Below are positions 10,434 to 25,424 of a stretch of 64,000 nt of DNA, one piece after another (the first letter of the stretch is position 1; every line of letters begins with the position of its first letter). Source of the stretch: Peterkaempfera bronchialis (GTDB taxonomy: Bacteria > Actinomycetota > Actinomycetes > Streptomycetales > Streptomycetaceae); NCBI RefSeq assembly GCF_003258605.2, contig NZ_CP031264.1:6440232-6504231 (forward strand), written 5' to 3'. The translations under genes were made by a program, and so were the position numbers. The notes beneath the pieces were generated by a model that saw only the letters and a list, made by a program, of their open reading frames with translations, was not told where the DNA came from and ran no database searches.

Positions 10434-10466
10434 TCAGCCACGGGCGCCGGGGGCGGCGACGGCATA

Positions 10467-10496
10467 CGTCAGATGACGGACGCCGGGCGATCCGGC
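10467..10496. promoter_or_regulatory. Putative operator of the ABC-transporter operon
   Basis: Bases 10467-10478 are the dyad CGTCA-GA-TGACG, followed at 10482-10496 by a second dyad GCCGG-N5-CCGGC. The first half is the same CGTCA-N2-TGACG element found in the regulator/hyuA intergenic region at 19867-19878, also followed there by CCGG-N4-CCGG. It lies 125 bp upstream of the binding-protein start. Binding by the LuxR-type regulator encoded in this locus is inferred. Confidence 0.6.
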
Positions 10497-10602: not shown

Positions 10603-11907
10603 ATGTCGAAGAGGGTTTCTCGGCGGGATTTCGTCCGTGGCGTCGGTGCCGCGACGGTGGGCGGCGCGATCGTCGGTGGTGCCGGTGGCTTTGTGGTGGC
10701 CCCTGCCACCCGGGAGGACACCTTCCGCAGCTCGGCCGGGCGCGGTGGCACGCTCAGAATCGGCGGCCTGGTCCCGGTGACCGGCGCGTATTCGGCAGAC
10801 GGCCAGGAAATGCGGCGCGGCCAGGAGATGGCGATCGCCGAGATCAACGCCGGGGGCGGCGTACTCGGCAGCAAGCTCGAACTGGTCGTCGCCGATGTCG
10901 CCGACATCGCGCCGGAGAAGTTCATCAATGGCGCGCGCAAACTCGCCCAGGGGGATCGCACGGCAGCGCTCTTCGGCGGTTACACCTCCTCCACCCAGGC
11001 GGAGTTCCCGGCCATCGCCCAGATCGGCACGCCCTTCTTCCATGCGAACACGCTCCAAGCCGATGTCGACGCGGTGAAGAAGGCCGGGTACACCAATATC
11101 TTCGAGACCGACCCGACCGAGCGCTGGTACGGGCCCGGCTTTCTCTCGCTGGCCAAGAACTGGATCGACAGCGGGGTGTGGAAACCGAAGAACCGCACCA
11201 TTGCGGTGATCACCACGACCGACCCGTACAGCACGTCGATCTCGGACAGCGTCCGCAAGTCGGCGAAGGAGCACGGCTGGGACATCTCCCTCTATGAGCA
11301 GGTGACCGCACCGCTCGCCGACTGGGGTCCGACGCTGGCCAAGATCAGGGCGAACCCACCGGGTCTGATCTTCCACGCCGACTACATCACCGGCGACCTC
11401 GCCTCCTTCACCAAGCAGTTCCGTTCCAGCCCGACCCCCTCGCTCCTCTTCGAGCAGTACGGCCCCTCGGTGCCGGAATACCTCGACCTCACCGGCGACG
11501 CCGCCAACGGGGTGCTCTGGTCGACCGTCATCGGCACCATCCCCGACGAGCGCGGCAAGGCGTTCATGAAGCAGTACCGGGAGAAGTACGGCGCCGCGGC
11601 CGGACTCAGCCAGGCGGGCGCGCAGTACGACGCCGTCCACCTGTGGGCCACCGCCGTCCGGCAGGTCAACGACCCCTATGACTTCCGCGCCGTCTCCCAG
11701 GCCGTGCTGGGCATCACCCACCGGGGCGTCAGCGGAGGCTACACCTTTGTCGAGGGCGAGCAGGCCGCGCGGCAGTACCCGGACCAGACCCGTGACGCCG
11801 GCCTCGGCATGGCGCACCAGACCTATCAGATCCAGGACCGGAAACACGTCCTCATCGCCCCCGAACCCTATATCCAGGGCGAGTTCCAGCTGCCGCCATG
11901 GCTCTGA
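10603..11907 (+). CDS. Tat-exported substrate-binding protein of a branched-chain-amide/amino-acid-type ABC transporter
   Basis: A 434-residue solute-binding protein of the Leu/Ile/Val-, urea- and amide-binding (Peripla_BP_6) superfamily. The N-terminus MSKRVSRRDFVRG has twin arginines at 7-8 followed by a Gly/Ala hydrophobic stretch, a Tat signal, with no lipobox Cys. The mature part starts GGTLRIGGLVPVTGAYSADG and continues IAEINAGGGVLGSKLELVVAD, typical of the fold. The ATG follows AGAGGTGG. It heads an eight-gene operon. Its C-terminal 150 residues align clearly with the ligand-binding half of the regulator at 18062-19831 (shared GPSVP, VIWSTV-like, SQAGA-YDAV-like, ITHRGV-like and PPW motifs). 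The ligand is probably an amide or cyclic amide, by context. Confidence 0.88.
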   Translation: MSKRVSRRDFVRGVGAATVGGAIVGGAGGFVVAPATREDTFRSSAGRGGTLRIGGLVPVTGAYSADGQEMRRGQEMAIAEINAGGGVLGSKLELVVADVADIAPEKFINGARKLAQGDRTAALFGGYTSSTQAEFPAIAQIGTPFFHANTLQADVDAVKKAGYTNIFETDPTERWYGPGFLSLAKNWIDSGVWKPKNRTIAVITTTDPYSTSISDSVRKSAKEHGWDISLYEQVTAPLADWGPTLAKIRANPPGLIFHADYITGDLASFTKQFRSSPTPSLLFEQYGPSVPEYLDLTGDAANGVLWSTVIGTIPDERGKAFMKQYREKYGAAAGLSQAGAQYDAVHLWATAVRQVNDPYDFRAVSQAVLGITHRGVSGGYTFVEGEQAARQYPDQTRDAGLGMAHQTYQIQDRKHVLIAPEPYIQGEFQLPPWL

Positions 11908-11924: not shown

Positions 11925-12689
11925 ATGGACACGCTTCTCGAGGTCGACGGGCTCTCCAAGCACTACGGCGGGTTGGCCGCAGTCGACGATGTCACCTTCT
12001 CGGTCACCGAGGGCGAGACCCTGGGGATCGCCGGTCCCAACGGCGCCGGAAAGACCACACTCTTCGATCTCATCTCCGGCCATGTCGGCGCCACCGCCGG
12101 CCGGGTCAGCTTCGCCGGACAGGAGATCCAGCGGCTCCCGATCCACCGGATCTGCCGCCTCGGCCTCTCCCGCACCTTCCAGCTCCCCTCGGTGATCGAC
12201 AGCCAGACGGTCTTCGCCAACGCGGTCGCCGGCAGCCACTTCGGTACGGCCCAGAAGGCGCGGTTCCGCTGGGGCTACACCCCCGAGGTGGCCGAGCGGG
12301 CCCATGAGGCGCTGGACTTCGTCGGCCTCTCCGACAAGGCGTCCACCCCGGCGGGTCCGCTGCCCGTCTTCGACAAGAAGCGGCTCATGATCGGCCAGGC
12401 ACTGGCCGCCCGCCCCCGCCTCCTGATGCTGGACGAGCCGGCCGGCGGCCTGACCCCGCCGGAGGTCGACAGCCTGGTGGAGCTGATCGGCGCGATCCGC
12501 GCCCGGGGCGTCACCGTCATCCTCATCGAGCATGTGATGCGCGCACTCACCGCGGTCGCCGACCGCGTACTGATCATGAACCAGGGCCGTCGCCTCTTCG
12601 AGGGCACCCCGGCGCAGATGATGGCCGACCCCGAGGTGGCCCGGGTCTACCTCGGTACCAGTGCGGGTGGTGACCATGCTCAGAGTTGA
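11925..12689 (+). CDS. ABC transporter ATP-binding protein, LivG type
   Basis: A 254-residue nucleotide-binding subunit. Walker A GPNGAGKTT is at about 37-45 and Walker B LLMLDE near 166-171, followed by PAGGLTPPEV. The ABC signature, normally LSxGQ, reads LPVFDKKR at about 146-153, so Ser and Gly of the signature are missing; LivG proteins often vary here, but this is far from consensus. ATG 11925 gives the family N-terminus MDTLLEVDGLSKHYGG and has GGAAG ten bases upstream. ATG 11898, overlapping the binding-protein gene, would add nine residues. The partner ATPase is encoded next. Energy coupling presumably depends on the LivF-like subunit signature as well. Confidence 0.87.
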   Translation: MDTLLEVDGLSKHYGGLAAVDDVTFSVTEGETLGIAGPNGAGKTTLFDLISGHVGATAGRVSFAGQEIQRLPIHRICRLGLSRTFQLPSVIDSQTVFANAVAGSHFGTAQKARFRWGYTPEVAERAHEALDFVGLSDKASTPAGPLPVFDKKRLMIGQALAARPRLLMLDEPAGGLTPPEVDSLVELIGAIRARGVTVILIEHVMRALTAVADRVLIMNQGRRLFEGTPAQMMADPEVARVYLGTSAGGDHAQS

Positions 12690-13404
12690 GAAGCTGTGCG
12701 CCGGGTACGGCGAGGTCCCCGTCCTGGACGGTGTCGACCTCTCCGTGGACCGGGGCGAGACCGTCGTGGTGGTCGGCCCCAACGGGCACGGCAAGACCAC
12801 CCTGGTCCGGGCGGTCAGCGGACTCGTGGTGCCGACCTCGGGACGGATCACCTTCGAAGGCGCGGACATCACCGGGCGGCGGGCCGAGGTGATCGCCCGG
12901 CTGGGCATCCGGCACATCCCGCAGGGAGACCTGCTCTTCCCGGATATGTCCGTGCTGGAGAACCTGCTGATGGGCGGCTTCCTCTGCCCCTCCCGGCAGG
13001 ACCGCGACCAGCGGCTGGCCAGGGTGTTCGAGATCTTCCCCAAGCTGTACCAGCGCCGGGAGCAGCGGTCCCGCACGCTCTCCGGCGGCGAGCGGCGCAT
13101 GCTCGCGATCGGCCGGGGCCTCATGGCCGAGGCACGGCTGCTCATCATCGACGAGCCCTCGCTCGGACTGGCACCGGTGATCGTGGACGAGGTCTACGCC
13201 CGGATCGGCCGGATCGCCGAGTCGGGGATCGCCATCCTGCTGGTCGAGGAGAACTTCGGCCACATCAAGGACCTCGCCGACCGGGTCTGCCTGGTGGAGA
13301 CCGGCCGGATCATCCGCGAGGGCAGCACCGCCGAGCTGATGTCGGACCAGGCCCTGGTCCGCACCTACCTGGGCGTCGAGACCGGACAGGAGGACGTCCG
13401 CTGA
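12676..13404 (+). CDS. ABC transporter ATP-binding protein, LivF type
   Basis: A 242-residue ATPase starting MLRVEKLCAGYGEVPVLDG. It has Walker A GPNGHGKTT at 34-42, Q-loop HIPQGDLLFP near 78-88, an intact signature LSGGERRMLAIGRGL near 138 and Walker B LLIIDEPSLGLAP. Ala of the usual GPNGAGKTT is replaced by His, which is common in LivF. The ATG at 12676 lies inside the end of the LivG-type gene (14-base overlap), and GTG 12661 is an alternative. It forms the heterodimeric motor with the LivG-type subunit for the two permeases that follow. Confidence 0.9.
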   Translation: MLRVEKLCAGYGEVPVLDGVDLSVDRGETVVVVGPNGHGKTTLVRAVSGLVVPTSGRITFEGADITGRRAEVIARLGIRHIPQGDLLFPDMSVLENLLMGGFLCPSRQDRDQRLARVFEIFPKLYQRREQRSRTLSGGERRMLAIGRGLMAEARLLIIDEPSLGLAPVIVDEVYARIGRIAESGIAILLVEENFGHIKDLADRVCLVETGRIIREGSTAELMSDQALVRTYLGVETGQEDVR

Positions 13405-14291
13405 TGTCCACACTCCTTCAGGCGCTGGTGAGCGCCGTGGTGATGGGCTCGGTCTACGCGCTCATGACGGTCGGCATGACCCTCATCTACGGCTCCCTGC
13501 GGATCCTCAACATGGTGCAGGGCGTCATGACGATGATCGGCGGGTTTGTCGCCTGGTGGGCGCTGGACCGCCTCGGCGTGAACCCATGGCTCGGGCTGGT
13601 GCTCGCCGCACTCCTCACCTTCGGGCTGGGCGTGGCCGTCCAGCAGATCGGCGTACGACCGCTGATCGGCCGGCGCGGCATCGACTTCGAGATGGCCGCG
13701 TTCATCACGACATTCGGCCTCGCCACCATCCTCCAGAATGTCGTCCAGCTCTGGTTCGGCCCCCGGCAGCTGAACTTCCCCGCACTGGTCGACGGTCAGT
13801 TCACCCTGCTCTCCGGGGTGACCGTCACCTGGCAGCAGGTGGTCATGACCGTGGTGGCCGTGGGCCTGCTGCTCGGCCTGCACACCTTCATGGTCCGGTC
13901 GCGCTACGGCATGTCCATCAACGCGGTGGCCCAGAACCTGCACGCCGCCCAGCTGATGGGGGTCCCGGTGCGCCGGGTGCATGTGATCACCATGGGCATC
14001 GCCTCGGCCCTCGCCGGGGTGGCCGGCGTGATGCTCGCGCCGATCTACTTCGTCTCGTCGAACGCGGGGGACCAGCCGCTGCTGCTCGCCATGATCGTGG
14101 CCATCCTCGGCGGGCTCGGCAGTGTGCGCGGCACCATCTGGGCCGCCTATGTCATCGGCCTCATCCAGTCGGTGGTCTCGGTCTACTGGAGCGTCACCTG
14201 GTCGCTGCCGATGCTCTTCGCCGTCATCGTCGTCGTGCTCGTCGTCCGGCCGTTCGGCCTGGACGGCAAGCCGCAGGAGGCACGTCTGTGA
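13404..14291 (+). CDS. Branched-chain amino acid-type ABC permease, LivH type
   Basis: A 295-residue inner-membrane permease with about eight hydrophobic segments. It has the LivH N-terminal pattern (VVMGSVYALMTVGMTLIYG, then LNMVQGVMTMIGGFVAW) and the coupling-region motif near 175-190 (RSRYGMSINAVAQNLHAAQL). AILGGLGSVRGTIWAAYVIG near 235 is the usual late motif. The ATG overlaps the previous stop as TGATG with AGGAGG upstream, and the end overlaps livM as GTGA. It pairs with the LivM-type protein to form the channel. Confidence 0.9.
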   Translation: MSTLLQALVSAVVMGSVYALMTVGMTLIYGSLRILNMVQGVMTMIGGFVAWWALDRLGVNPWLGLVLAALLTFGLGVAVQQIGVRPLIGRRGIDFEMAAFITTFGLATILQNVVQLWFGPRQLNFPALVDGQFTLLSGVTVTWQQVVMTVVAVGLLLGLHTFMVRSRYGMSINAVAQNLHAAQLMGVPVRRVHVITMGIASALAGVAGVMLAPIYFVSSNAGDQPLLLAMIVAILGGLGSVRGTIWAAYVIGLIQSVVSVYWSVTWSLPMLFAVIVVVLVVRPFGLDGKPQEARL

Positions 14292-15331
14292 ACGCCATAC
14301 TCGGCCGGCCGCGTCTGCGGCCGGCGCTCATCACCGCTCTTGCGCTGATCGCCCTGATGACACCCTGGGTGATCAAGAGCTCATACCTCCTCGGTGTGCT
14401 CATCCTCGGGCTCATCTGGCTGACGCTCAACCAGAGCTGGAACCTCGTCCTCGGCGTGAGCGGGGTGTGGAACTTCGGGCACCTGGCGCTCTATGCGGTC
14501 GGCGGATACGCCGGCGGGCTCTTCTCGCTGCACACCGGCCTCTCGTCATGGATCGGGCTGCTCGTCGGCGGCCTGGCCGCGGGCGCCGGCGGCGTGCTGC
14601 TGGCCATTCCGTCGCTGCGGCTGCGCGGCATCTACGCCGCGCTGCTCACCTTCTCGTTCGCGTATGTCATCCAGCTGGTCATCACCTCCGACCGCAGCGG
14701 CCTCACCGGCGGGTCGTTCGGGCTCACCGGCTACCACGGTCTGGCCTTCGGTACGACGGACGCCACGGCGGTCGCGCACGGCTACTACTGGACGGCGCTG
14801 GCCGTCACCCTGGTCACCGCCGCCGCCATGCTGCTGGTGACGCGTTCGCCGATGGGGCTGGCATTCGTCGCACTGCGCGAGAACGCCCCGCTGGCCGCCG
14901 CGCGAGGCATCAGCCCGATCACGTACCAGGTGCTGTCCTTCGGCATCTCCGGCTTCTTCGCCGGTCTGGCCGGGGCGCTCTACGCCTACTACTTCGGGGT
15001 GATCACGCCCACCGTCATGGGCCTGGGCCCGATGACGATCTTTGTGACCATGATGGTGGTGGGCGGTCTCGGCACCCTGAGTGGTCCATTCGTCGGCACG
15101 GCGCTGATCCTCGCCGTGCAGACCGCCCTTGAGGGCTACCCGCAGGCCCGGCTGATCGTCCTCGGGGCCGTGCTGGTGGCCATGGTCGTCATCATGCCGC
15201 GCGGCATCGTCGACGCCGTCGGGGCGATCAACCGGCGGATCGAACGCTGGGTGGCCGAGGGCGAAGAGGCCGAGGACGAAGCGGACGACCGGGCCGGCGA
15301 GCCGGTCCAGACGATGGCAGGTCGGGCATGA
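14288..15331 (+). CDS. Branched-chain amino acid-type ABC permease, LivM type
   Basis: A 347-residue permease with about ten hydrophobic segments. LivM hallmarks are LTLNQSWNLVLGVSGVWNFG near 42-62, the coupling helix around MGLAFVALRENAPLAAARGI near 195-212, and VGGLGTLSGPFVGTALIL near 258-275. The C-terminal 30 residues are a charged acidic cytoplasmic tail (EGEEAEDEADD), unusual but not disruptive. GTG 14288 overlaps livH as GTGA; the end overlaps the deacetylase-like gene as ATGA, which ties the hydrolase genes to the transporter at translation. Confidence 0.9.
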   Translation: MNAILGRPRLRPALITALALIALMTPWVIKSSYLLGVLILGLIWLTLNQSWNLVLGVSGVWNFGHLALYAVGGYAGGLFSLHTGLSSWIGLLVGGLAAGAGGVLLAIPSLRLRGIYAALLTFSFAYVIQLVITSDRSGLTGGSFGLTGYHGLAFGTTDATAVAHGYYWTALAVTLVTAAAMLLVTRSPMGLAFVALRENAPLAAARGISPITYQVLSFGISGFFAGLAGALYAYYFGVITPTVMGLGPMTIFVTMMVVGGLGTLSGPFVGTALILAVQTALEGYPQARLIVLGAVLVAMVVIMPRGIVDAVGAINRRIERWVAEGEEAEDEADDRAGEPVQTMAGRA

Positions 15332-16215
15332 ACAGCATCAGTACGCGGCAGCTCTCGGTCTGCCTCACCTTCGACTTCGACGCACTCTCGGTCTGGCTCT
15401 CGGGCGGCTCGGTCAACCCGGCCGAGATCTCCCGGGGGGAGTTCTGCGCGGTGGCCGTGCCCCGCATCCTGCGGTTGCTCGCCAAGCACGACATCCCGGC
15501 GACCTTCTTCGTCCCCGGACACACCGCGCTCGCCTACCCCGAGCTGGTCCGCGACATCGCGGAGGCCGGGCATGAGATCGGCCACCACGGCTGGGTGCAC
15601 GAGAACCCGGCGCACTTCGACCGCGACGGCGAGCGCGCCAACTTCGCGCGGGCGCTTGAGGCGCTCGACCGGGTCGCGGGGGTGCGCCCGGTCGGCTTCC
15701 GCTCACCCGCAGTCGATCTGAGCGTCCATTCGATCGACATCCTGCTGGAGAACGGCATGCGCTACGACAGCTCCTGCCAGGGCTCGGACTTCACGCCGTA
15801 CTACCTGCGGCAGGGCGACCGCTGGTCGACCAGCGGGCCCTATGAGTTCGGCGACTCCAGCGAGATCGTCGAAGTGCCGTTCAGCTGGCTGCTCGACGAC
15901 TTCCCGCAGTTCGAGTTCGAGCAGGGCTTCAGCTACACGCTGGGTTCGCCGAGCAAGGTGCGCGAGATCTGGCAGGGCGAGTTCGACTACGCCTATGAGA
16001 ACGTCCCGGGCGGTGTCTTCGACCTGTGCATGCATCCGCAGGTCATCGGTCGCGGCCATCGGATCACCATGCTGGACGGCCTGATCGAGCATATGAAGTC
16101 CCGCAGCGGCGTGGTCTTCACCCGGATGGGAGAGTACGCCGAGCAGTGGCGGGCCGCCCACCCGCTGGAGGCGTGGAAGGCCACCCGGCCGGTGCACGCC
16201 CGGCGGGACGCATGA
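15328..16215 (+). CDS. Polysaccharide deacetylase-family (NodB/PuuE-like) amidohydrolase
   Basis: A 295-residue NodB-fold metal-dependent hydrolase. Motif 1 is TFDFDA at 14-19 (metal/base Asp), motif 2 is H87-GWV-H91, motif 3 FRSPAVDLS near 129 and a late DLCMHPQVIGR near 236 with the catalytic His. There is no signal peptide, so it is cytoplasmic and unlikely to act on cell-wall polysaccharide. Cytoplasmic members include PuuE allantoinase and cyclic imide hydrolase, which open cyclic amides or imides. Co-translation with the transporter (ATGA) and the presence of hydantoinase genes in the same locus favour a ring-opening or deformylating role here (inference). Confidence 0.8.
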   Translation: MNSISTRQLSVCLTFDFDALSVWLSGGSVNPAEISRGEFCAVAVPRILRLLAKHDIPATFFVPGHTALAYPELVRDIAEAGHEIGHHGWVHENPAHFDRDGERANFARALEALDRVAGVRPVGFRSPAVDLSVHSIDILLENGMRYDSSCQGSDFTPYYLRQGDRWSTSGPYEFGDSSEIVEVPFSWLLDDFPQFEFEQGFSYTLGSPSKVREIWQGEFDYAYENVPGGVFDLCMHPQVIGRGHRITMLDGLIEHMKSRSGVVFTRMGEYAEQWRAAHPLEAWKATRPVHARRDA

Positions 16216-16952
16216 GTACCGCCCCCGCCGCCGGGGTCCGCATCGCCGGAGCCCGCGCCGTCGTCACCGGCGCGGCCTCCGGAATCGGGCGGGCCGTCGC
16301 CGAGCGCCTGCGCGCGGAGGGGGCGGCGGTCGTCGGCCTGGACCTGCGCGCCGACCCGGAGACCGTGGCCGTCGACGTACGCGACGAGGGATCGGTCCGG
16401 GCAGGCTTCGCCGAGGCGGTGTCCCGACTCGGCGGCGCCCCCACCATCCTGGTGCAGTCGGCCGGGGTCTTCCCGGTCCGCCCGCTGGACGAGGTCAGCG
16501 TCGCCGAGTGGCGCGACACCTTTGACGTCAATGTCCTCGGCACGATGCTCTGCGCGCGTACGGCGGTCGGGCTCGCCCGCGCCGCCGGCCACGGCCTCTC
16601 CATCGTCAACCTCTCCTCGATCGCCGCCGAGAGCAGCGACTGGGAGGAGCCGTGCGCGGCCTATGCCGCCACCAAGGCAGGGGTGGGCGCGCTGACCCGC
16701 GCCATGGCGGGGGAGTGGGCGCCCTACGGGGTCCGGGTGAATGCCGTCGCCCCCGGGATGATCGACACCCCCATGCTCCGGGTGATGGACGACCCTGCCG
16801 CCGGCGCCGAGACGATCCGCAGCAGCGTGCCGCTGGCCAGGCTCGGCCGCGCCGAGGAGATCGCCTCGGTGGTCTGCTTCCTCGCCTCCGAGGGCGCGTC
16901 GTATGTCACGGGGACGACGGTGACCGCCGACGGCGGCTACCGGATCAGGTAG
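16212..16952 (+). CDS. Short-chain dehydrogenase/reductase
   Basis: A 246-residue classical SDR. The NAD(P)-binding TGAASGIGRAV is near 19-29, the Asp of GLDLRAD near 41-47 suggests NAD preference, and the active site has Ser in NLSSIAAES near 137-145 and Y-x3-K in YAATKAG near 155-161. The C-terminal VTGTTVTADGGYRIR is typical of the family. It overlaps the deacetylase-like gene by ATGA and is the seventh gene of the transporter operon. It probably oxidises or reduces an alcohol/ketone on the imported compound or its hydrolysis product; the substrate cannot be inferred. Confidence 0.88.
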   Translation: MSTAPAAGVRIAGARAVVTGAASGIGRAVAERLRAEGAAVVGLDLRADPETVAVDVRDEGSVRAGFAEAVSRLGGAPTILVQSAGVFPVRPLDEVSVAEWRDTFDVNVLGTMLCARTAVGLARAAGHGLSIVNLSSIAAESSDWEEPCAAYAATKAGVGALTRAMAGEWAPYGVRVNAVAPGMIDTPMLRVMDDPAAGAETIRSSVPLARLGRAEEIASVVCFLASEGASYVTGTTVTADGGYRIR

Positions 16953-16991: not shown

Positions 16992-18065
16992 GTGAAGCGC
17001 ACCTTCACCTCGTCGGTCGCCGCACCCCGTGCGCGCGGCCGGGAGTTCGGCCTGGCCCACGCCGCCGAGATCGGCCGGACCATCGCCTCCTATCGCGCGC
17101 TCTTCGCCCGCACCGCCGGTCATGACCTCGACCTGGACGGGCCCGGCGCCGAGGCGCTGGCGGCCATCCGCGGCTGGGCTCCCGACCTCGCCGAGGAGAT
17201 CGAGGGCATCGCCGAGGGAGCGGGCCTGCCGGTCGAGCAGGTCGCCGCGATCAACGCCCGTACCGAGATCCTGGCGACCCTGACCCCGGCGGCCAAGGGC
17301 GAGTGCTCGGCGGTCGTCCTGCTGGCCGACGACGGCAGCGCGCCGGTCGCCGTCCAGACCTGGGACTGGTACTCCGGCATGGCCCCCAACTGGCTGGTCT
17401 GGACGATCCCCCACGGAGACGGCCGGGTGACCCGGACGGTCACGGAGTACGGCGTCGTCGGCAAGATCGGCGCGAACGGCGCGGGCATCGGCGTGCTCTT
17501 CACGATCCTGCACCATGAGCGCGACGGCCGGGGGATCGGTGTGCCCGTGCATGTGGTGGCCCGCCGGGTGCTCGATGACGCGGCCGACATCAACGACGCG
17601 CTCACGATGATCGCCTCGGCGGCGGTCTCGGCCTCCACATCGCTCACCGTGGTCGCCTCATCGGACGACGGCAGCGCCGCGATCACCGCCGAGCTGCACC
17701 CCGGCGGCCCGGCCTGGGTGCGGCCCGACGCCGACGGCGTGCTGATCCACACCAACCACTTCCTCACCCAGCCCGCCGCGCTCGGCGACACCGAGCCCAG
17801 GGCCTTCCCCGACACCCTGGTCCGCTACGACATCATCCAGCGCGGGCTCCGCCGCCGCACCGCCGGGCCCGCAGCAGCCAAGCCCGCAACGGAGCAGGTC
17901 CTCGCGGTGATGGCGAACCACCTGGGCGGCGGCGGCGCGGTCTGCTGCCACCCGGACCCGAGGGCGAGCGACCGCGACGCCGAGTACGCCACCCTGGCCA
18001 CGGTCGTCCTGGACACGGCGACCGGCGGAGTCACCGCGATCCCCGGCGGCCCCTGTACGCGTTAG
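16992..18065 (+). CDS. C45-family acyltransferase/amidohydrolase (Ntn hydrolase)
   Basis: A 357-residue protein of the peptidase C45 / acyl-CoA:6-aminopenicillanate acyltransferase family. The N-terminal helical part ends NARTEIL near 88-94, the family motif before the nucleophile. G103-E104-C105 then matches the region where these proenzymes cut themselves to expose an N-terminal Cys nucleophile. The segment TWDWYSG near 122 and the Asn in TNHFL near 253 fit the active site. Members hydrolyse or transfer acyl groups on amides. GTG 16992 has AAGGAG five bases upstream. It ends the operon and its stop overlaps the convergent regulator gene by four bases. No signal peptide is visible, so the product is probably intracellular. 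Confidence 0.8.
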   Translation: MKRTFTSSVAAPRARGREFGLAHAAEIGRTIASYRALFARTAGHDLDLDGPGAEALAAIRGWAPDLAEEIEGIAEGAGLPVEQVAAINARTEILATLTPAAKGECSAVVLLADDGSAPVAVQTWDWYSGMAPNWLVWTIPHGDGRVTRTVTEYGVVGKIGANGAGIGVLFTILHHERDGRGIGVPVHVVARRVLDDAADINDALTMIASAAVSASTSLTVVASSDDGSAAITAELHPGGPAWVRPDADGVLIHTNHFLTQPAALGDTEPRAFPDTLVRYDIIQRGLRRRTAGPAAAKPATEQVLAVMANHLGGGGAVCCHPDPRASDRDAEYATLATVVLDTATGGVTAIPGGPCTR

Positions 18066-19831
18066 CCGCCCTGGGCGGTGCGCCACGGCGGTTCGCGGAA
18101 CGCCGACACAGTGCCGAACGGCGCCGGGCCGAGCACCCGGTGCTGCCCGCCCTGGATCTGGTACACCAGGTGCGCCTGGCCGATCGAGGGGTCGGACGTC
18201 ACATCGGGGTAGGCCAGCGCGCACTGCCCAGCCGTGCCGAGGTAGTAGACGCCGTTGACGCCCCGGTGGACCAGGTGGCGCAGCGCGGCGGTGACATCGC
18301 GTGGGTCGCTGCCGCCCGTCGCGGTCCAGGCCGAGGCGAGCAGGCCGACCTGGTCGTAGGCCGCACCGGCCTGTGACCACCCGGACTCGGCGGCGTACTC
18401 CCGTCGGTACTCCTCCCGGAACCGCTTGCCGAGCGAGTCGTCGTAGACCCCGGTGACCGTCGACCAGATCACCCCCTCCGCGATGTCGCCCAGGGACTCG
18501 GAGAAGGCGGGCACGGAGGGGCCGTAGACGCAGTAGACCAGGGCGTCGGTGGCGTCCCGGCTGAAGGCGTGCTGGAAGCCGGCGAGCGCGTCGGCGACAA
18601 AGTGGGTGACCATCACGGCGGCCGGACCGATGTCGTGGAGGCGGGCCAGCACCGAGGTCCAGTCGTCGGGGAAGAGCGGCACCCGGATGACCTCGGAGAC
18701 CTCCCACCCGGAGCGCTCGGCCCGGTCGAAGAAGAGCTCGTTCGCCGTGTGCGTACTCACCGCGTCGGCTTCGACCAGAAGCAGCCTGCGGCTGGGCGGC
18801 TGCCACCGGCCGCTCCCCGCCAGCTCGTCCAGCAGCCGGACGAACCCGGTGCCGTAGTGCAGCTCGGACGGGCAGGTCTGGAAGACCGTGCCATAGCGGG
18901 TCGGGTCCTCCCGGACGAGCTGCACCTGCTCTTCGAAGGTGGCGGTGTGCAGATAGGGCCGGGCGAAGTCGGCGGCGAGGTCGAGCGCGGCCGGGTTCTC
19001 CGCGCTGGGGTAGCTGGAGATCAGCGCATCGACATCATGGTCGAAGACGGACTCGAACGCGGCCGTGACGCTGTCCGGCTCGAAGAAGTCCGCGCCGACC
19101 ACCACATGCTCGATCGGCCTGCCGCCGATGCCGCCCCGGCGGTTGATCTGCTGGACCGCCAGCCCCGCCCCCCGCAGCATCTCCAGCCCGTCCGAGGCCA
19201 CCGGCCCCGTCATGGGGATCACCGAGCCGAGCAGGAACGGCCTGCGCCGGGGGTAGGCCGGGGCCGTGGCCCGCCACCGCTCGGTCACCGGTGTGCCACC
19301 GGCCCGCTGCTCGATGTCGGCCAGCGTCAGGCCGGACACCCCCTCGGCACCGCCCGGTATCGGCAGCCTGAGCAGGCCGTTGTCCACGGCGACGGCGGCC
19401 AGGCCGCCGCGCCCGGTCTGGCCGAGCTTGGAGAGCAGGCGCTCCACCTGGGTGGAGACCGTGCGGGCGCTCGTCCCGAGGCGGCCCGAGATCTGCGCAT
19501 TGGTCAGCCCCAGGGCCAGCAGGGTGAGCACATCGATCTCGCGGGAGGTGAGCGAGCGCGGCAGTTCGGTGTCGGCCAGGGAGAGCAGCGCGGTGGCCTC
19601 AGACCCGGCAGACCCGGCAGCCCCGGCTCGTCGTTCGAGGCAGACCGCCAGCCAGGCGTCGCGCGGCTGCGCCCAGAGGAAGCGCGCGCTCTCATGCCGG
19701 GTGGCCAGGAATGCCGCCGCATAGCGGAGCAGCCCGGCGGGGACGGTGCGCCTCGGGCCGAGCCCGACCACCTGTCCCGATCGGTCGACGACGACTTCCC
19801 ATGCGGTACCGGCCGCTGCTGTGACTGCCAT
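18062..19831 (-). CDS. One-component regulator: LuxR-type HTH fused to an ABC-type ligand-binding domain
   Basis: A 589-residue protein. Residues 1-90 are an unassigned small domain and 93-155 a LuxR/NarL helix-turn-helix (LTSREIDVLTLLALGLTNAQ, then TVSTQVERLLSKLG). Residues 198-580 form a complete Leu/Ile/Val-binding-type (Peripla_BP_6) domain starting LLGSVIPMTGPVASDG. The last domain is a paralogue of the exported binding protein at 10603-11907: GPSVP, VIWSTVTG, WSQAGAAYD, HRGVNG, QAHLVYQIQ and PPW line up in the same order. There is no signal peptide or membrane segment, so it should sense ligand in the cytoplasm, as AmiC does for AmiR, but on one chain with the DNA-binding domain. It is divergent from hyuA and convergent with the transporter operon. 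Confidence 0.88.
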   Translation of the reverse strand: MAVTAAAGTAWEVVVDRSGQVVGLGPRRTVPAGLLRYAAAFLATRHESARFLWAQPRDAWLAVCLERRAGAAGSAGSEATALLSLADTELPRSLTSREIDVLTLLALGLTNAQISGRLGTSARTVSTQVERLLSKLGQTGRGGLAAVAVDNGLLRLPIPGGAEGVSGLTLADIEQRAGGTPVTERWRATAPAYPRRRPFLLGSVIPMTGPVASDGLEMLRGAGLAVQQINRRGGIGGRPIEHVVVGADFFEPDSVTAAFESVFDHDVDALISSYPSAENPAALDLAADFARPYLHTATFEEQVQLVREDPTRYGTVFQTCPSELHYGTGFVRLLDELAGSGRWQPPSRRLLLVEADAVSTHTANELFFDRAERSGWEVSEVIRVPLFPDDWTSVLARLHDIGPAAVMVTHFVADALAGFQHAFSRDATDALVYCVYGPSVPAFSESLGDIAEGVIWSTVTGVYDDSLGKRFREEYRREYAAESGWSQAGAAYDQVGLLASAWTATGGSDPRDVTAALRHLVHRGVNGVYYLGTAGQCALAYPDVTSDPSIGQAHLVYQIQGGQHRVLGPAPFGTVSAFREPPWRTAQGG

Positions 19832-19866
19832 AGGGACGCCGGCTCCTCACCACGAGTAGGGCTGTC

Positions 19867-19897
19867 CGTCATTTGACGCATGACGCCGGAAATCCGG
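19867..19897. promoter_or_regulatory. Putative operator between regulator and hyuA
   Basis: Bases 19867-19878 are CGTCA-TT-TGACG, and 19886-19897 are CCGG-AAAT-CCGG. The same pair of elements occurs upstream of the transporter operon at 10467-10496. The site lies in the 109-bp gap between the divergent regulator and hyuA starts, so it could control both. Binding is inferred. Confidence 0.6.
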
Positions 19898-19940
19898 TCC
19901 GATCAAATGTTCATGCAGTGTAACCAGGCAGGAGTTGCTT

Positions 19941-21985
19941 ATGGCCCAGGCTCGTGTGGGAATCGACGTCGGCGGCACGTTCACCGACGCCGTCCTCGTC
20001 GACAGTGACAACCGACTGCACATCGGGAAGGTCGCCTCCACCCCGTCGGACATCTCCGTGGGCTTCGTCCGTGGACTCGACGTACTGGAGGAACGCAGCG
20101 GCATCGCCGCCGGGGAACTGACCTACCTCGCCCACGGCACGACCGTGGCGACCAATGCCATCGTGCAGCGCAGGCTCGCCCGCAGCGGCCTGATCACCAA
20201 CGACGGCTTCCGCGACCTGCTGGAGATCGGCACCCAGCAGCGGGCGCACATCTACGACCTCTGGACCCCGGAGCAGCCTGCGGTGATCAGCCGCGAGCAC
20301 TGCCACGGCGTACGCGGTCGCATCGCCCCAGACGGCAGCGAACTCCAACCGCTCTCCGAGGACGACGTCCGGGCGGCGGCTGCGGCGCTGCGCGAGGCCG
20401 GGGCGGAGTCGGTCGCGGTCGTGCTGCTCTTCTCCTTTCTGAACCCCGCCCATGAGCGGCGGGTCCGCCGGATCCTCGCCGCCGAGCTGCCCGGGGTGCC
20501 GGTCACCCTCTCCTGCGAGGTGGCACCGGAGATCCGGGAGTACCTCCGCGCCAGTACGACCGCGCTCAACGCCTCGCTGCTGCCGCTCGTCGGCAGCTAC
20601 CTCGGCCGTCTCGCCGAGGTCGTGGCCGCGCGCGGGGTCGCGGTGCCGGTCCATCTGATGTGCTCCAACGGGGGCCTCGCCGCCGCCCGGGCGGCGGCGG
20701 AGCTGCCGGTGGCCCTCGCCACCTCGGGCCCGGCCGCCGGGGTCATCGGCGCGGCCCGGCTGGGCGCGCTCGCCGGTGAGAGCGACCTGCTCACCTTTGA
20801 CATGGGCGGCACCACCGCCGATGTCGCGGTCGTCATCGACGGCCGGCCCGAGGTCCGGCACAGCGGTGTGCTCAACGGCCACCCGGTCAACCTCTCCCAG
20901 CTCGATGTGCTCTGCGTCGGCGCGGGCGGCGGCTCGCTCGCCCGCGTCGACGAGTTCGGCGCCCTGCTGGTCGGCCCGCAGAGCGCGGGCGCCTCCCCGG
21001 CCCGGCGGCGTACGGGCGCGGCGGCGTCCACCCGACGGTCACCGACGCCCATGCGGTGCTCGGCACGCTCAGCGAGTCGCGGTCGCTCGGCGGCGACCTC
21101 ACCATCGACCCCGAGGCCGCACGCGCCGCCGTGCAGCGCGAGGTCGCCGGACCGCTCGGCCTGTCGGTCGAGGACGCCGCCTGGGCGATCCTGCGGGTGG
21201 CCAACGCCAATATGGCCGCCGCGCTGCGCCTGGTCTCCGTCGCCCGGGGCCATGACCCGCGCCGGATGGCCCTGGTCGCGCTCGGCGGCGCGGGCCCGAT
21301 GCACGGCTGTGCGCTCGCCGAGGAGCTGGACGTACCGCGCCTGCTCGTCCCGCCGTACCCCGGCGTGACGGCGGCGCTCGGCCTGCTGCTCTCCGACATC
21401 CGGTACGACATCGGGCAGAGCTGGGTCCGGGAGACCGGGCGGGTCGGCGAGGCCGCGCTGGAGGAGCAGCTGGCCGCGCTCACCGCGCGGGCCCGCGAAC
21501 TGCTCGCCCAGACCGGGCACGAGGAGGACGGGCAGCTGGAGTTCTCGGCCGACATGCGCTACCTCGGCCAGGCGTACAACCTCACCGTCCCGCTGCCGCC
21601 CCCGCCCGTCACCGCCGGGTCGACGGCGGAGGCCGAGCGGTCCTTTGTGGAGGCGCACCGCAAGGCGTACGACTACGTCCTCCCCGACACCCCGACCGAG
21701 ATCGTGGCGCTCCGGGTACGGGCGGTGGTCCCGGCGGAGCCGGTCGTCTGGGAGGTCGCCGGCGCCGGCCGCGACGATGCCTTCCTCGGCCGGCGGAAGG
21801 TGCATATGAACGGCGAATGGCTTGAGTGCGATGTGCTCGACCGGGCCCGCCTCGGCACCGGCGACCTCGTCCACGGCCCGGCGATCATCGACCAGGAGGA
21901 CACCACCACCGTCGTGCTGCCCGGTTGGCAGGCCGAGACGGTCGCCGCCGGCTCACTGCTGCTCACCCGAAGGGACCACGCCTGA
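19941..21985 (+). pseudogene. hyuA: Hydantoinase/5-oxoprolinase subunit A (HyuA), frameshifted
   Basis: HyuA is the ATP-binding subunit of N-methylhydantoinase/5-oxoprolinase-type enzymes. The first part reads normally: VGIDVGGTFTDAVLVD at the N-terminus, HGTTVATNAIVQRR near 65-80, SGPAAGVIGAARL and TFDMGGTTADVAVV, up to GALLVGPQSAGASP near residue 352. There the frame is lost. The family sequence GPAAYGRGGVHPTVTDAH resumes in the +2 frame, and the rest (ARGHDPRRMALVALGGAGPM...) runs to 21985. One missing base in the C/G run at about 20993-21003 explains this; restoring it gives 681 aa, the normal family length. ATG 19941 has GGAG seven bases upstream. Either a genuine null mutation or a sequencing error in a GC run. 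Confidence 0.85.
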
Positions 21986-23592
21986 TGACGCTCGACCCGG
22001 TGACCCAGGAGATCCTGGCCAGTGCGTTCCACAGCATCGGCGAGGAGATGGCGGTCGTGGAGTACCGCTCGTCCTTCTCCCCGATCATCCGCGAGATGCT
22101 CGACTTCAACTGCGCGCTCTTCGACGCGCAGGGCCGGATGGTCGCGCACTCCGAGCAGATCCCGGCGCAGCTCGGCCTGATGCAGTTCGCCCTGCAAGCC
22201 GCGCTGGTCCGCCACGGCGGAGTGCTCGCCCCGGGCGACGCCGTGCTCACCAACCACCCGTACATGGGCGGTACGCACACCAATGACCTCCAGGTGTTCA
22301 TGCCGATCCACGTGGGCGCCGAACTCGTCGGGTACGCCGGTTCCATCGCACACCACATCGACATCGGCGGCACCTTCCCGGGCACCGAGAGCGCGCAGAC
22401 CACCGAGCTCTTCCACGAGGGAATGATCTTCCCGGCGATCAAGCTGGTGGACGCCGGAGCCGTCAACGAGGTGGTCTACGACCTGATCCGCGCCAATGTC
22501 CGCGACCCGCACTCGACCGTCGGCGACCTCGGCGCCCAACTCGCGGCGTGCAAGCGCGGGGTGGAGCGGGTGCGCGAACTCTGCGGGCGGTTCGGCGCCG
22601 ACACCATCGTCCAGGCGATGGGCAGCCTGCTCGACGACACCTCGGCACGGGCTGGCGCGCTCTTCGCGGAGTGGCCGTCCACCTCGGTCACGGTCGAAGG
22701 ACATCTGGACGACGGCGGCTTCGAGGGCACCGACCCGGTACGCATCCGGCTGACCCTCACCGCCCGCGACGGACGTCTCTCCATCGACTTCACCGGCACC
22801 TCCGAGCAGGTCCCCAGCGGTATGAACGTGCCGCTGGCCAGCGCCCACGCCGGGGTCTACTTCGGGGTGCGCTGCTTCGCCGGCCACTCCGGCATCCGGC
22901 AGAACGACGGCATGACCCGGCTGATCGAGGTGACCGCCCCCGAGGGCACGCTGGTCAACCCGGTCTTCCCGGCGGCGCTCAGCGCACGGCACCTCGCCGT
23001 ACAGCGGATCGCCGATCTGATGATCGAGGCGCTCGGCGAGCTGCTGCCCGACCGGGCGGTCGCGGCGAGCCATGTCTCCTTCCCCGCCTGGGTGTTCCGC
23101 GCCCATGACCCCCGATCGGGCAAGGACACCCTGCTCGCCGACATCCTCGGCGGCGGCGGAGGCGCCCGCGCCGACGCCGACGGCGACCACGCGCTCGACA
23201 CCTACTGCTCCAACTGCGCGATCCTCCCAGCGGAGATCACCGAGCTGGAGTACCCCTGGCGGGTCGAACGCACCGAGCTGGTCGACGGCTCCGGCGGCAC
23301 CGGGCGCTTCCACGGCGGCCTCGCGGTCCGCCGCGACATCACCCTGCTCACCGCCGAGGCGGACGGCATGTACTACGTCGAGCAGACCAACGCCGACTTC
23401 GCCGCCAAGGGCCGCAACGGCGGCGGCAGCGGCACCCCGGGCCACGCCGCCCTGCGCCGCAGCGACTCCACCGACTGGGAACGCCTCCCGGGCAAGGGCT
23501 ACCTCCGCATGCGCAACGGCGACACCGTGTCCTTTGTCAGCGCCGGCGGCGGAGGCTACGGCACCCACCCCGACGGCGTGCCGCACCCATGA
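21985..23592 (+). CDS. hyuB: Hydantoinase/5-oxoprolinase subunit B (HyuB)
   Basis: A 535-residue protein, full length for HyuB. It begins LDPVTQEILASAFHSIGEEM and contains SSFSPIIREMLDFNCALFDA near 30-50, NHPYMGGTHTNDLQVFMPI near 91-110 and GSIAHHIDIGG near 119, with His/Asp residues typical of the metal site. The Gly-rich DILGGGGGARADADGD near 387-402 and a late SAGGGGYGTHPDG follow. HyuA and HyuB together hydrolyse cyclic amides such as N-methylhydantoin or 5-oxoproline with ATP. The ATG overlaps the hyuA stop as TGATG. Since hyuA is frameshifted in this sequence, the complex may be inactive unless the shift is an artefact. Confidence 0.88.
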   Translation: MTLDPVTQEILASAFHSIGEEMAVVEYRSSFSPIIREMLDFNCALFDAQGRMVAHSEQIPAQLGLMQFALQAALVRHGGVLAPGDAVLTNHPYMGGTHTNDLQVFMPIHVGAELVGYAGSIAHHIDIGGTFPGTESAQTTELFHEGMIFPAIKLVDAGAVNEVVYDLIRANVRDPHSTVGDLGAQLAACKRGVERVRELCGRFGADTIVQAMGSLLDDTSARAGALFAEWPSTSVTVEGHLDDGGFEGTDPVRIRLTLTARDGRLSIDFTGTSEQVPSGMNVPLASAHAGVYFGVRCFAGHSGIRQNDGMTRLIEVTAPEGTLVNPVFPAALSARHLAVQRIADLMIEALGELLPDRAVAASHVSFPAWVFRAHDPRSGKDTLLADILGGGGGARADADGDHALDTYCSNCAILPAEITELEYPWRVERTELVDGSGGTGRFHGGLAVRRDITLLTAEADGMYYVEQTNADFAAKGRNGGGSGTPGHAALRRSDSTDWERLPGKGYLRMRNGDTVSFVSAGGGGYGTHPDGVPHP

Positions 23593-23655: not shown

Positions 23656-24636
23656 ATGACGCCAACGACATCGCACCCACTCGCCATCGCGGCCAAGGGG
23701 CTGCGCAAGGCATACGGGGACAAGACGGTCCTCGACGGCATCGACCTGGCCGTGCCGACCGGCACCATCTTCTCCCTGCTCGGCCCGAACGGCGCCGGCA
23801 AGACCACCGCCGTCAAGATCCTCTCCACCCTCCTCACCGCCGACGCCGGCGACCTGCGCGTCGGCGGCCACGACCTGGCCGCCGACCCGCAGGCCGTACG
23901 GGCCGCGATCGGCGTCACCGGCCAGTTCTCCGCCGTCGACGGCCTGATCACCGGCGAGGAGAACATGCTCCTGATGGCGGACCTGCACCACCTCTCCCGC
24001 AGCGAGGGCCGCCGCACCGCCGCCGAGCTGCTGGACCGCTTCGAACTGGTGGAGGCCGCGAAGAAGCCCGTCTCCAGCTACTCCGGCGGCATGCGGCGCC
24101 GCCTCGACATCGCCATGACGCTGGTCGGCGACCCGCGGATCCTCTTCCTGGACGAGCCGACCACCGGCCTGGACCCGCGCAGCCGCCACACCATGTGGGG
24201 GATCATCCGCGAGCTGGTCTCCGGCGGCGTCACCGTCTTCCTCACCACCCAGTACCTGGAGGAGGCCGACGAACTCGCCGACCGCATCGCCGTGTTGAGC
24301 GACGGCAGGATCGCCGCCGAGGGGAGCGCCGACGAGCTGAAGCGGCTCATCCCGGGCGGGCAGGTGCGGCTGCGGTTCACCGACCCGGTCGCGTACCGGT
24401 CCGCCGCCGTCGCCCTGCGCGAGGTCACCAGGGACGACGAGGCGCTGTCGCTGCGGATCCCCAGCGACGGCAGCCAGCGCGAGCTGCGCTCCATCCTCGA
24501 CCGACTGGACTCGGCCGGCATCGAGGCGGACGAGCTGACCGTGCACACCCCCGACCTCGACGACGTGTTCTTCGCCCTGACCGGCGGCGCCCATCTGCCC
24601 AACCAGCCCAACCAGCCCAAGGAGACCGTCCGATGA
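23656..24636 (+). CDS. Daunorubicin-resistance-type ABC transporter ATP-binding protein (DrrA-like)
   Basis: A 326-residue ATPase with Walker A GPNGAGKTT at 43-51, VTGQFSAVDGLITGEEN near 94-110 (the segment shared by DrrA proteins), signature YSGGMRRRLDIAMTLV near 142-157 and Walker B LFLDEPTTGLDPRSR. The C-terminal third holds the DrrA-type regulatory region, ending with DLDDVFFALTGG. The last residues are an NQPNQPK repeat. It overlaps its permease by ATGA. The pair should export a hydrophobic compound or antibiotic. The adjacent AfsR-like regulator is the obvious candidate controller. Confidence 0.88.
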   Translation: MTPTTSHPLAIAAKGLRKAYGDKTVLDGIDLAVPTGTIFSLLGPNGAGKTTAVKILSTLLTADAGDLRVGGHDLAADPQAVRAAIGVTGQFSAVDGLITGEENMLLMADLHHLSRSEGRRTAAELLDRFELVEAAKKPVSSYSGGMRRRLDIAMTLVGDPRILFLDEPTTGLDPRSRHTMWGIIRELVSGGVTVFLTTQYLEEADELADRIAVLSDGRIAAEGSADELKRLIPGGQVRLRFTDPVAYRSAAVALREVTRDDEALSLRIPSDGSQRELRSILDRLDSAGIEADELTVHTPDLDDVFFALTGGAHLPNQPNQPKETVR

Positions 24637-25424
24637 GCGCCCTCTCCCTCGCCGTACGCGACTCGAACACCATGCTGCGCCGCAACCTGCTGCATGCGCG
24701 GCGCTACCCGTCCATGACCCTCAACCTGCTGCTCACGCCGATCATGCTGCTGCTGCTCTTCGTCTACATCTTCGGCGATGTGATGAGCGCGGGCATCGGT
24801 GGCGGCAGCGCCGATCGCTCCGAGTACATCGCCTATATCGTCCCGGGCATCCTGATGATGACCATCGGCAGCACCGTGATCGGGGCCGCGGTCTCCGTCT
24901 CCACCGACATGGCCGAGGGGCTCATCGCCCGCTTCCGTACGATGGCGATCCACCGCAGCTCCGTGATCATCGGGCATGTCGTCGGCAGCGTGCTTCAGGT
25001 GCTCGCCAGCCTGGTCCTCGTCGGTGCCGTCGCCGTGGCCATCGGCTTCAGGTCCACGGACGCCACGGCCCTGGAGTGGCTGGCGGCGTTCGGGCTGCTC
25101 GCGCTGTTCGCCCTGGCGCTCACCTGGATCGCGGTCGGGATGGGCATGGCCAGCCCGAATGCCGAGGCCGCAGGCAACATGGCCATGCCGCTGATCCTCC
25201 TCCCGCTCATCTCAAGCGCCTTCATCCCGGCCGACACGATGCCGGGCTGGTTCCAGCCGATCGCCGAGTACCAGCCGTTCACCCCGGCCATCGAGACCCT
25301 GCGCGGCCTGCTGCTCGGCACCGAGATCGGCAACAACGGGTGGATCGCGATCGTCTGGTGCCTCGTCCTGACCGCGCTCGGCTACCGCTGGTCGACGTCG
25401 CTGTTCAACCGCGACCCGAAATGA
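24633..25424 (+). CDS. ABC-2 type permease (DrrB-like)
   Basis: A 263-residue membrane protein with six likely transmembrane segments. It begins with a short cytoplasmic helix containing NTMLRRNLLHARRYPSM, and the ABC-2 motifs follow: LLLTPIMLLLLFVYIFG, YIVPGILMMTIGST, and a late LISSAFIPADTMPGWFQPIAEYQ near 205-230, the proline-rich loop typical of DrrB. The ATG overlaps the ATPase stop. Its last 20 bases overlap the 3' end of the convergent regulator gene, leaving no room for a terminator between them. Confidence 0.87.
   Translation: MSALSLAVRDSNTMLRRNLLHARRYPSMTLNLLLTPIMLLLLFVYIFGDVMSAGIGGGSADRSEYIAYIVPGILMMTIGSTVIGAAVSVSTDMAEGLIARFRTMAIHRSSVIIGHVVGSVLQVLASLVLVGAVAVAIGFRSTDATALEWLAAFGLLALFALALTWIAVGMGMASPNAEAAGNMAMPLILLPLISSAFIPADTMPGWFQPIAEYQPFTPAIETLRGLLLGTEIGNNGWIAIVWCLVLTALGYRWSTSLFNRDPK

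What the first reader, a model, noticed from the sequence alone, without database searches (positions are those of the whole stretch)
18062..19831. Cytoplasmic copy of an ABC receptor fused to a LuxR-type DNA-binding domain
The regulator carries, on one chain, a LuxR/NarL helix-turn-helix (about 93-155) and a whole Peripla_BP_6 binding domain (198-580). That domain is collinear with the exported receptor of the same locus (10603-11907), with matching GPSVP, WSTV, SQAGA, HRGV, Q-x-YQIQ and PPW blocks, yet it has no signal peptide. This suggests duplication of the transporter receptor and its capture as an intracellular sensor of the imported compound. AmiC/AmiR is a two-protein precedent for cytoplasmic sensing by this fold.
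Basis: partly seen in the sequence, partly recalled or inferred. Interest (0 to 1): 0.85.

Follow-up and report, generated by a model that had tools for sequence, protein, structure and literature searches.

The report
Gene switch built on transporter receptor
This actinobacterium carries a gene switch in which a transporter's nutrient-catching domain, kept inside the cell, is joined to a DNA-binding domain; it belongs to a little-noticed family of at least 60 such switches that sit beside genes for breaking down amide-type compounds, and its likely DNA target site can be read directly from the genomes.

Summary
Observation confirmed. The 589-aa protein has a LuxR/NarL HTH (93-147) and a complete Peripla_BP_6 domain (197-585), has no signal peptide, and is 34% identical to the local Tat-exported receptor, its only binding-domain match in the genome. 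AlphaFold pLDDT is 92.

It is not a one-off. All 66 relatives scanned, from Actinomycetota and Alphaproteobacteria, carry both domains. Most sit beside PuuE-like deacetylase, SDR, nitrilase, C45-hydrolase or caprolactamase-like HyuAB genes.

"Copy of its own receptor" needs correction. Regulator and receptor domains form two groups split by one branch (100/99), and pairing the window's two proteins is rejected (p=9e-7). The split is ancient. In at least one lineage with a transporter of another family the regulator keeps the same sensor, so it follows the enzymes.

New here: a candidate operator, TCCGTCA-N2-TGACGGA. Its core occurs only twice in the window, between hyuA and the regulator and upstream of the receptor operon. 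It recurs at matching places in about a dozen other genomes. An enumeration of 9,216 dyads ranks it first.

Most likely a cytoplasmic one-component regulator of uptake and hydrolysis of a cyclic amide; ligand and sign are untested. New variant of a known kind (SgrR, Btr, AmiC, NasS).

The parts
18062..19831 (-). Fusion regulator gene, 589 aa
19568..19804 (-). N-terminal domain, residues 10-88, strand-helix-three-strand (PAS-like by secondary structure only)
   Evidence: predicted structure; similar stretch before the HTH in stand-alone LuxR genes
19391..19555 (-). LuxR/NarL-type HTH, residues 93-147
   Evidence: PF00196 E 1.1e-12
18077..19243 (-). Type-I periplasmic-binding-protein domain, residues 197-585, the presumed sensor
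   Evidence: PF13458 E 3.3e-30; Z 49 to 3h5l
19863..19882 (.). Candidate operator 1 (core 19867-19878, CGTCATTTGACG), between hyuA and the regulator
10463..10482 (.). Candidate operator 2 (core 10467-10478, CGTCAGATGACG), upstream of the receptor operon
10603..11907 (+). Tat-exported receptor (Peripla_BP_6), 434 aa
11898..12689 (+). ABC importer ATPase 1 (ABC_tran, BCA_ABC_TP_C)
12661..13404 (+). ABC importer ATPase 2
13404..14291 (+). ABC importer permease 1 (BPD_transp_2)
14300..15331 (+). ABC importer permease 2 (BPD_transp_2); start approximate
15328..16215 (+). Polysaccharide-deacetylase-fold hydrolase, similar to PuuE allantoinase
   Evidence: PF01522 E 5.8e-21; TIGR03212 E 1.4e-20, below cut-off
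16200..16952 (+). SDR oxidoreductase; start approximate
16992..18065 (+). C45-type autoproteolytic acyltransferase/hydrolase (AAT)
   Evidence: NF040521 229 bits over cut-off 85
19935..21985 (+). hyuA, caprolactamase-alpha-like; reading frame broken near 20975-20999
21982..23592 (+). hyuB, caprolactamase-beta-like; start approximate
   Evidence: PF02538 E 9.5e-157

Best explanation
The protein is a soluble, cytoplasmic one-component transcription factor. Its C-terminal type-I binding-protein domain is the sensor. A cyclic amide or related amide (lactam, imide or hydantoin type; a pathway substrate or early intermediate) binds between the two lobes. The resulting closure changes how the NarL-type HTH dimer meets a 7-2-7 inverted-repeat operator (TCCGTCA-N2-TGACGGA). 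The operator lies upstream of hyuAB and the regulator itself, and upstream of the importer-deacetylase-SDR-C45 operon, so uptake and hydrolysis are switched together. Shown by sequence: the domains, absence of an export signal, the family, the conserved neighbourhood and the conserved dyad at both promoters. Inferred: that this protein binds that dyad, dimerisation, ligand class, and activation rather than repression. Sensor and receptor belong to one binding-protein subfamily but parted long before this locus; in the importer-bearing subclade both genes have since been inherited together.
For: Two domains on one chain in all 66 members scanned; no export signal, against Tat or lipoprotein signals in the receptors; confident fold of a complete two-lobed domain, nearest structures 3h5l, then 8wch with L-pyroglutamate, AmiC Z 36. 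Core dyad only twice in 64 kb, both at promoters of this locus; nine sites in 7.09 Mb, of which these two match the extended consensus best; same dyad at receptor or regulator promoters of other lineages; top of an enumeration of 9,216 dyads. 58 of 63 loci hold a deacetylase-fold gene or hyuA. Regulator and receptor distances correlate in 12 loci that hold both (r 0.80).
Against: No binding, expression or ligand data exist. The dyad is clear only in the importer-bearing subclade and a few others; most other regulator loci show no such site. The dyad could belong to another LuxR protein. Relatedness inflates the motif count. Cleft loops differ in part from the receptors. hyuA of this genome is frame-broken, so the pathway may be partly decayed here.
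Confidence: 0.72

Rival explanations
1. One reading: the local receptor gene was duplicated and captured by the local regulator, so sensor and receptor of this locus are direct paralogues with the same ligand.
For: 34% identity, collinear, and each is the other's only close binding-domain match in the genome. Shared operator and co-inheritance make a common ligand plausible.
Against: AU tests reject pairing the two (p 9e-7) and the wider grouping (p 2.6e-5); one 100/99 branch parts all regulators from all receptors. The same sensor occurs beside a Peripla_BP_4 importer.
Confidence: 0.05
2. The sensor does not read the imported substrate but a breakdown product or intermediate made by the deacetylase, C45, nitrilase or Hyu enzymes (product induction).
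For: The regulator tracks the enzymes more than the importer (52 of 63 loci with the deacetylase, 12 with both importer permeases). Receptor Tyr209 and Gln285 are not kept, and regulators have their own conserved set.
Against: Many cleft-loop positions are shared with receptors; co-inheritance of regulator and receptor.
Confidence: 0.25
3. The binding domain is a decayed or purely structural part; the true input is the N-terminal PAS-like domain or another partner.
For: A further N-terminal domain is present and a similar stretch precedes the HTH in stand-alone LuxR genes.
Against: The N-terminal part is the least conserved, whereas the binding domain is conserved along its full length including cleft loops and is modelled as a complete two-lobed domain.
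Confidence: 0.07

Closest known systems
Btr (YbbB) of Bacillus: AraC-type regulator with FeuA-like substrate-binding domain (PMC3896406)
   Same: One chain: HTH plus an ABC-receptor-like domain, gene next to the exported receptor and importer
   Different: AraC HTH and siderophore-type binding fold, different domain families
SgrR / DsvR (PMC13060122)
   Same: N-terminal HTH with C-terminal ABC solute-binding domain on one cytoplasmic chain
   Different: SBP_bac_5 domain and another HTH family; sugar-related stress response
AmiC-AmiR of Pseudomonas aeruginosa (PDB 1pea, 1qo0)
   Same: Same type-I binding fold (Z 36, 20-21% identity), cytoplasmic, amide sensing
   Different: Two separate proteins; AmiR is an RNA-binding antiterminator, not a LuxR DNA-binder
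NasS-NasT (PMC3795266)
   Same: Signal-less copy of an ABC receptor acting as a cytoplasmic sensor
   Different: Two proteins, nitrate, ANTAR antitermination, NrtA-type fold
3h5l, putative ABC receptor of Silicibacter pomeroyi
   Same: Closest solved relative of both the sensor domain (33%, Z 49.2) and the local receptor (40%, Z 54.0)
   Different: Stand-alone receptor without DNA-binding domain; ligand not established here

Membership tests
LuxR/NarL-type (GerE) DNA-binding regulators | GerE HTH domain | tested here: met
   PF00196 47.8 bits, cut-off 23.5; 66 of 66 relatives
LuxR/NarL-type (GerE) DNA-binding regulators | Binds an inverted-repeat operator | tested here: inconclusive
   Conserved 7-2-7 dyad at the expected promoters, but no binding data
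Two-component response regulators | Phosphoacceptor receiver domain (PF00072) | tested here: not met
   No receiver match in the window protein or any of the 66 scanned members
HAAT/BCAA ABC receptors (Peripla_BP_6) | Peripla_BP_6 fold | tested here: met
   106 bits, cut-off 31.7; Z 49 to 3h5l
HAAT/BCAA ABC receptors (Peripla_BP_6) | Export signal | tested here: not met
   No hydrophobic or Tat-like start in the regulator; present in the receptor
AmiC/AmiR systems | Separate sensor protein partnered with an ANTAR antiterminator | tested here: not met
   Sensor is on the same chain as a LuxR HTH; no ANTAR match
SgrR-type regulators | SBP_bac_5 solute-binding domain | tested here: not met
   Binding domain is Peripla_BP_6; no SBP_bac_5 match
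Btr-type regulators | AraC HTH with siderophore-type receptor domain | tested here: not met
   No AraC HTH or siderophore-receptor-domain match
LacI/GalR regulators | N-terminal LacI HTH followed by a type-I binding fold | tested here: not met
   HTH is GerE; no LacI HTH match
Ligand sensors of lactam/imide catabolism | Direct binding of a lactam, imide or hydantoin | not testable with these tools
   Only indirect: neighbouring enzymes and the 8wch fold match

The most novel reading that the evidence does not exclude
A widespread family of LuxR-type one-component regulators, not described in the papers searched, senses lactams, imides or related natural and man-made amides with an internalised ABC-receptor domain and acts through a readable 7-2-7 operator. 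Regulator and receptor of one locus bind the same compound on opposite sides of the membrane. Members are annotated in public records as 'ABC transporter substrate-binding protein'.
Probability: 0.4. Interest if true: 0.7.

Novelty: new variant of a known kind. Interest (0 to 1): 0.58.

Why it matters
It turns a curious fusion into a testable regulatory system: a family with members in two phyla, a conserved enzyme context, a predicted operator at named coordinates and a predicted ligand class. Two members on plasmids are annotated as transporter receptors in public records, so other such regulators are probably hidden the same way. If the ligand class is right, these proteins are single-chain biosensors for lactams or imides, a chemical class that includes caprolactam and dicarboximide fungicides (general knowledge). 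The locus also gives a natural pair, a cytoplasmic sensor and an exported receptor from one subfamily, in which to study how a transport receptor fold serves as a transcription-factor sensor.

Tried and rejected
Local duplication of the receptor: rejected by tree and AU tests. Response-regulator reading: no receiver domain. Rooting the binding-domain tree with other binding proteins of the same genome: outgroup branches of 6-9 changes per site, unusable, so the direction receptor-to-regulator is not shown. The genome scan with the divergent alignment A1 failed for lack of conserved stretches and was redone with A2. A dyad search with arms of 7 or more found no operator in the window; the core CGTCA-N2-TGACG emerged by comparison with a receptor promoter of L039. 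Sigma-70-type promoter or terminator near hyuA: none found. No paper found describing a GerE/Peripla_BP_6 fusion, but the library is open-access only. DmfR, the LuxR activator of dimethylformamidase (PMC4543880), could not be checked for a binding domain because its plasmid record and paper are not held. The PAS-like reading of the N-terminal domain rests on secondary structure and weak similarity only.

Full report
WHAT IS THERE. The minus-strand gene 18062-19831 encodes 589 residues with an ATG start and no internal stop. Pfam places a LuxR/NarL HTH at 93-147 and Peripla_BP_6 at 201-527, both well over their cut-offs. AlphaFold with 66 family members gives mean pLDDT 91.7. It predicts a small strand-helix-three-strand N-terminal domain (10-88), the HTH, a low-confidence loop at 185-193, and a complete two-lobed binding domain. 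The binding domain matches 3h5l best (Z 49.2, 385 residues), then 8wch with bound L-pyroglutamate (Z 41.3); AmiC scores Z 36.2. The receptor's own model gives the same first two matches (Z 54.0 and 39.7). The receptor has a Tat-like signal; the regulator has no export signal. In the 7.09 Mb genome the sensor domain finds only this receptor, although six further Peripla_BP_6 places exist, one below the cut-off.

A FAMILY. A search of about 1,090 genomes found 8 with such a fusion, in Streptomycetaceae and other families of the class. A scan of one genome each for 84,980 species added more than 50, from Streptomyces, Mycolicibacterium, Leucobacter, Nocardioides, Rhodococcoides, Nonomuraea, Pseudonocardia, Conexibacter, and alphaproteobacteria such as Kaistia, Mesorhizobium, Rhizobium and Acidisoma. 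Two more lie on plasmids (Agrobacterium, Paenarthrobacter), annotated 'ABC transporter substrate-binding protein'. All 66 scanned members carry both GerE and Peripla_BP_6.

HISTORY OF THE SENSOR DOMAIN. In a tree of 53 regulator and 27 receptor domains a single branch (100/99) separates regulators from receptors, and all 200 bootstrap trees agree. Holding the window's regulator and receptor together is rejected (p-AU 9e-7), as is holding together 22 window-type regulators and neighbouring receptors (2.6e-5). The regulator's binding domain is 58-59% identical to its nearest regulators in other lineages but 34% to its own receptor. So it is not a local copy. Both belong to one subfamily and split long ago; which form came first is not shown, since the outgroups were too distant. 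In 12 loci that hold both, regulator and receptor distances correlate (Mantel r 0.80, p 5e-5), as expected for a pair inherited together, though species history contributes.

WHAT THE REGULATOR TRAVELS WITH. Of 63 loci, 52 carry the deacetylase-fold gene, 41 an SDR, 21 a nitrilase-family gene, 20 hyuA, 15 the C45 hydrolase; 58 have deacetylase or hyuA. For scale, the own genome has four matches to the deacetylase in 7.09 Mb. Only 12 have both importer permeases of this type. In L069 (Nocardioides carbamazepini) the neighbouring importer uses a Peripla_BP_4 receptor, and L054 carries a penicillin amidase. The sensor thus stays while the importer changes: it follows the enzymes. HyuA and HyuB score best against caprolactamase subunits (below the cut-offs), the C45 protein is above its cut-off, and the deacetylase resembles PuuE allantoinase (below the cut-off). 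Cyclic or secondary amides are the common denominator; this is inference.

A CANDIDATE OPERATOR. The core CGTCA-N2-TGACG occurs exactly twice in the window: at 19867-19878, between hyuA and the regulator, and at 10467-10478, upstream of the receptor operon. Allowing one mismatch adds no hit. Expected exact matches are 0.14; 2 of 100 shuffles reach two. The genome has nine sites (the backwards control has three); the two of this locus match the extended consensus CATCCGTCANNTGACGGATG best (16 and 15 of 18, others 10-14). The same dyad lies upstream of the receptor in L030, L039-L045, L048-L051 and L104, and upstream of the regulator in L037, L048 and L049; L048 and L049 carry a second site near the start of the deacetylase operon. 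An enumeration of all 5-base half-sites with spacings 0-8 around 69 regulator genes ranks this dyad first (12 loci, 0.83 expected, p about 1e-10 before correction for 9,216 tests). Relatedness inflates the count (several Mycolicibacterium), and the extended consensus was derived partly from these same sites, but the dyad spans several families. The 7-2-7 spacing is that of NarL dyads (general knowledge). L077 and L082 show a related GGTCA-N2-TGACC dyad, which would fit a shift of specificity between clades. Most other clades show no such site.

POCKET. Several cleft-loop positions are shared by regulators and receptors (T298, Y326, W391, Y436, S439 in regulator numbering; Y274 is Tyr or Phe in receptors). 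Others differ: receptor Tyr209 (29/29) is Ser359 here and variable in the family, receptor Gln285 is aliphatic in regulators, and regulators have their own conserved set (R518, N526, Q552). The phmmer alignment places Y274 and S276 over AmiC Tyr83 and Ser85; that these line the AmiC amide pocket is from memory. A working pocket with related but possibly not identical specificity is the fairest reading.

MECHANISM, WITH STATUS OF EACH STEP. Shown by sequence: one chain without export signal, conserved sensor, conserved dyad at both promoters, conserved enzyme context. Inferred: the ligand enters by the importer or arises in the pathway, binds between the lobes, and changes DNA binding of the HTH dimer at the dyads, coordinating hyuAB with the importer-hydrolase operon. 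Whether this activates or represses is unknown; LuxR-type regulators usually activate (general knowledge).

COMPARISON. The idea of an internal ABC receptor as sensor is known: AmiC, NasS (PMC3795266), SgrR/DsvR (PMC13060122) and Btr (PMC3896406). The combination LuxR/NarL HTH plus Peripla_BP_6, as a family spanning two phyla, tied to amide-type catabolism and with a recognisable operator, was not found in the papers searched. Hence 'new variant of a known kind'.

Noticed in passing
window 20975-20999: hyuA reading frame is broken: homology to an intact relative (L039) continues in another frame, 73% then 54% identity. Sequencing error or real frameshift.
   Followed up: partly
L038 6403-10200 (Aminobacter niigataensis DMFA1 plasmid): Beside dimethylformamidase genes, a Peripla_BP_6 protein without a signal peptide follows a NarL-type response regulator and a PAS histidine kinase: possibly the same sensor idea as a separate protein.
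   Followed up: partly
L033 7835-10391 (also L031, L034): Unfused version: a stand-alone LuxR gene next to a receptor of the same subfamily. In L033 the intergenic region holds the same dyad, ATCCGTCATTTGACGGAT; L031, L032 and L034 lack it.
   Followed up: partly
L077 and L082, upstream of the regulator: Related dyad GGTCA-N2-TGACC instead of CGTCA-N2-TGACG; operator specificity may shift between clades.
   Followed up: no
L053 10001-11617 (+) and 18733-20493 (-): Kaistia hirudinis locus with two different fusion regulators about 7 kb apart.
   Followed up: no
L069 6144-9692: Importer with a Peripla_BP_4 receptor beside a Peripla_BP_6-LuxR regulator, so importer and sensor are of different families.
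   Followed up: yes
L036 and L037 (plasmids): Fusion regulators on conjugative plasmids are annotated 'ABC transporter substrate-binding protein'.
   Followed up: yes
window 25405-28533 (-): Large SARP-like regulator (BTAD, AAA and TPR domains, 1042 aa) next to an ABC-2 type exporter pair at 23656-25424.
   Followed up: no
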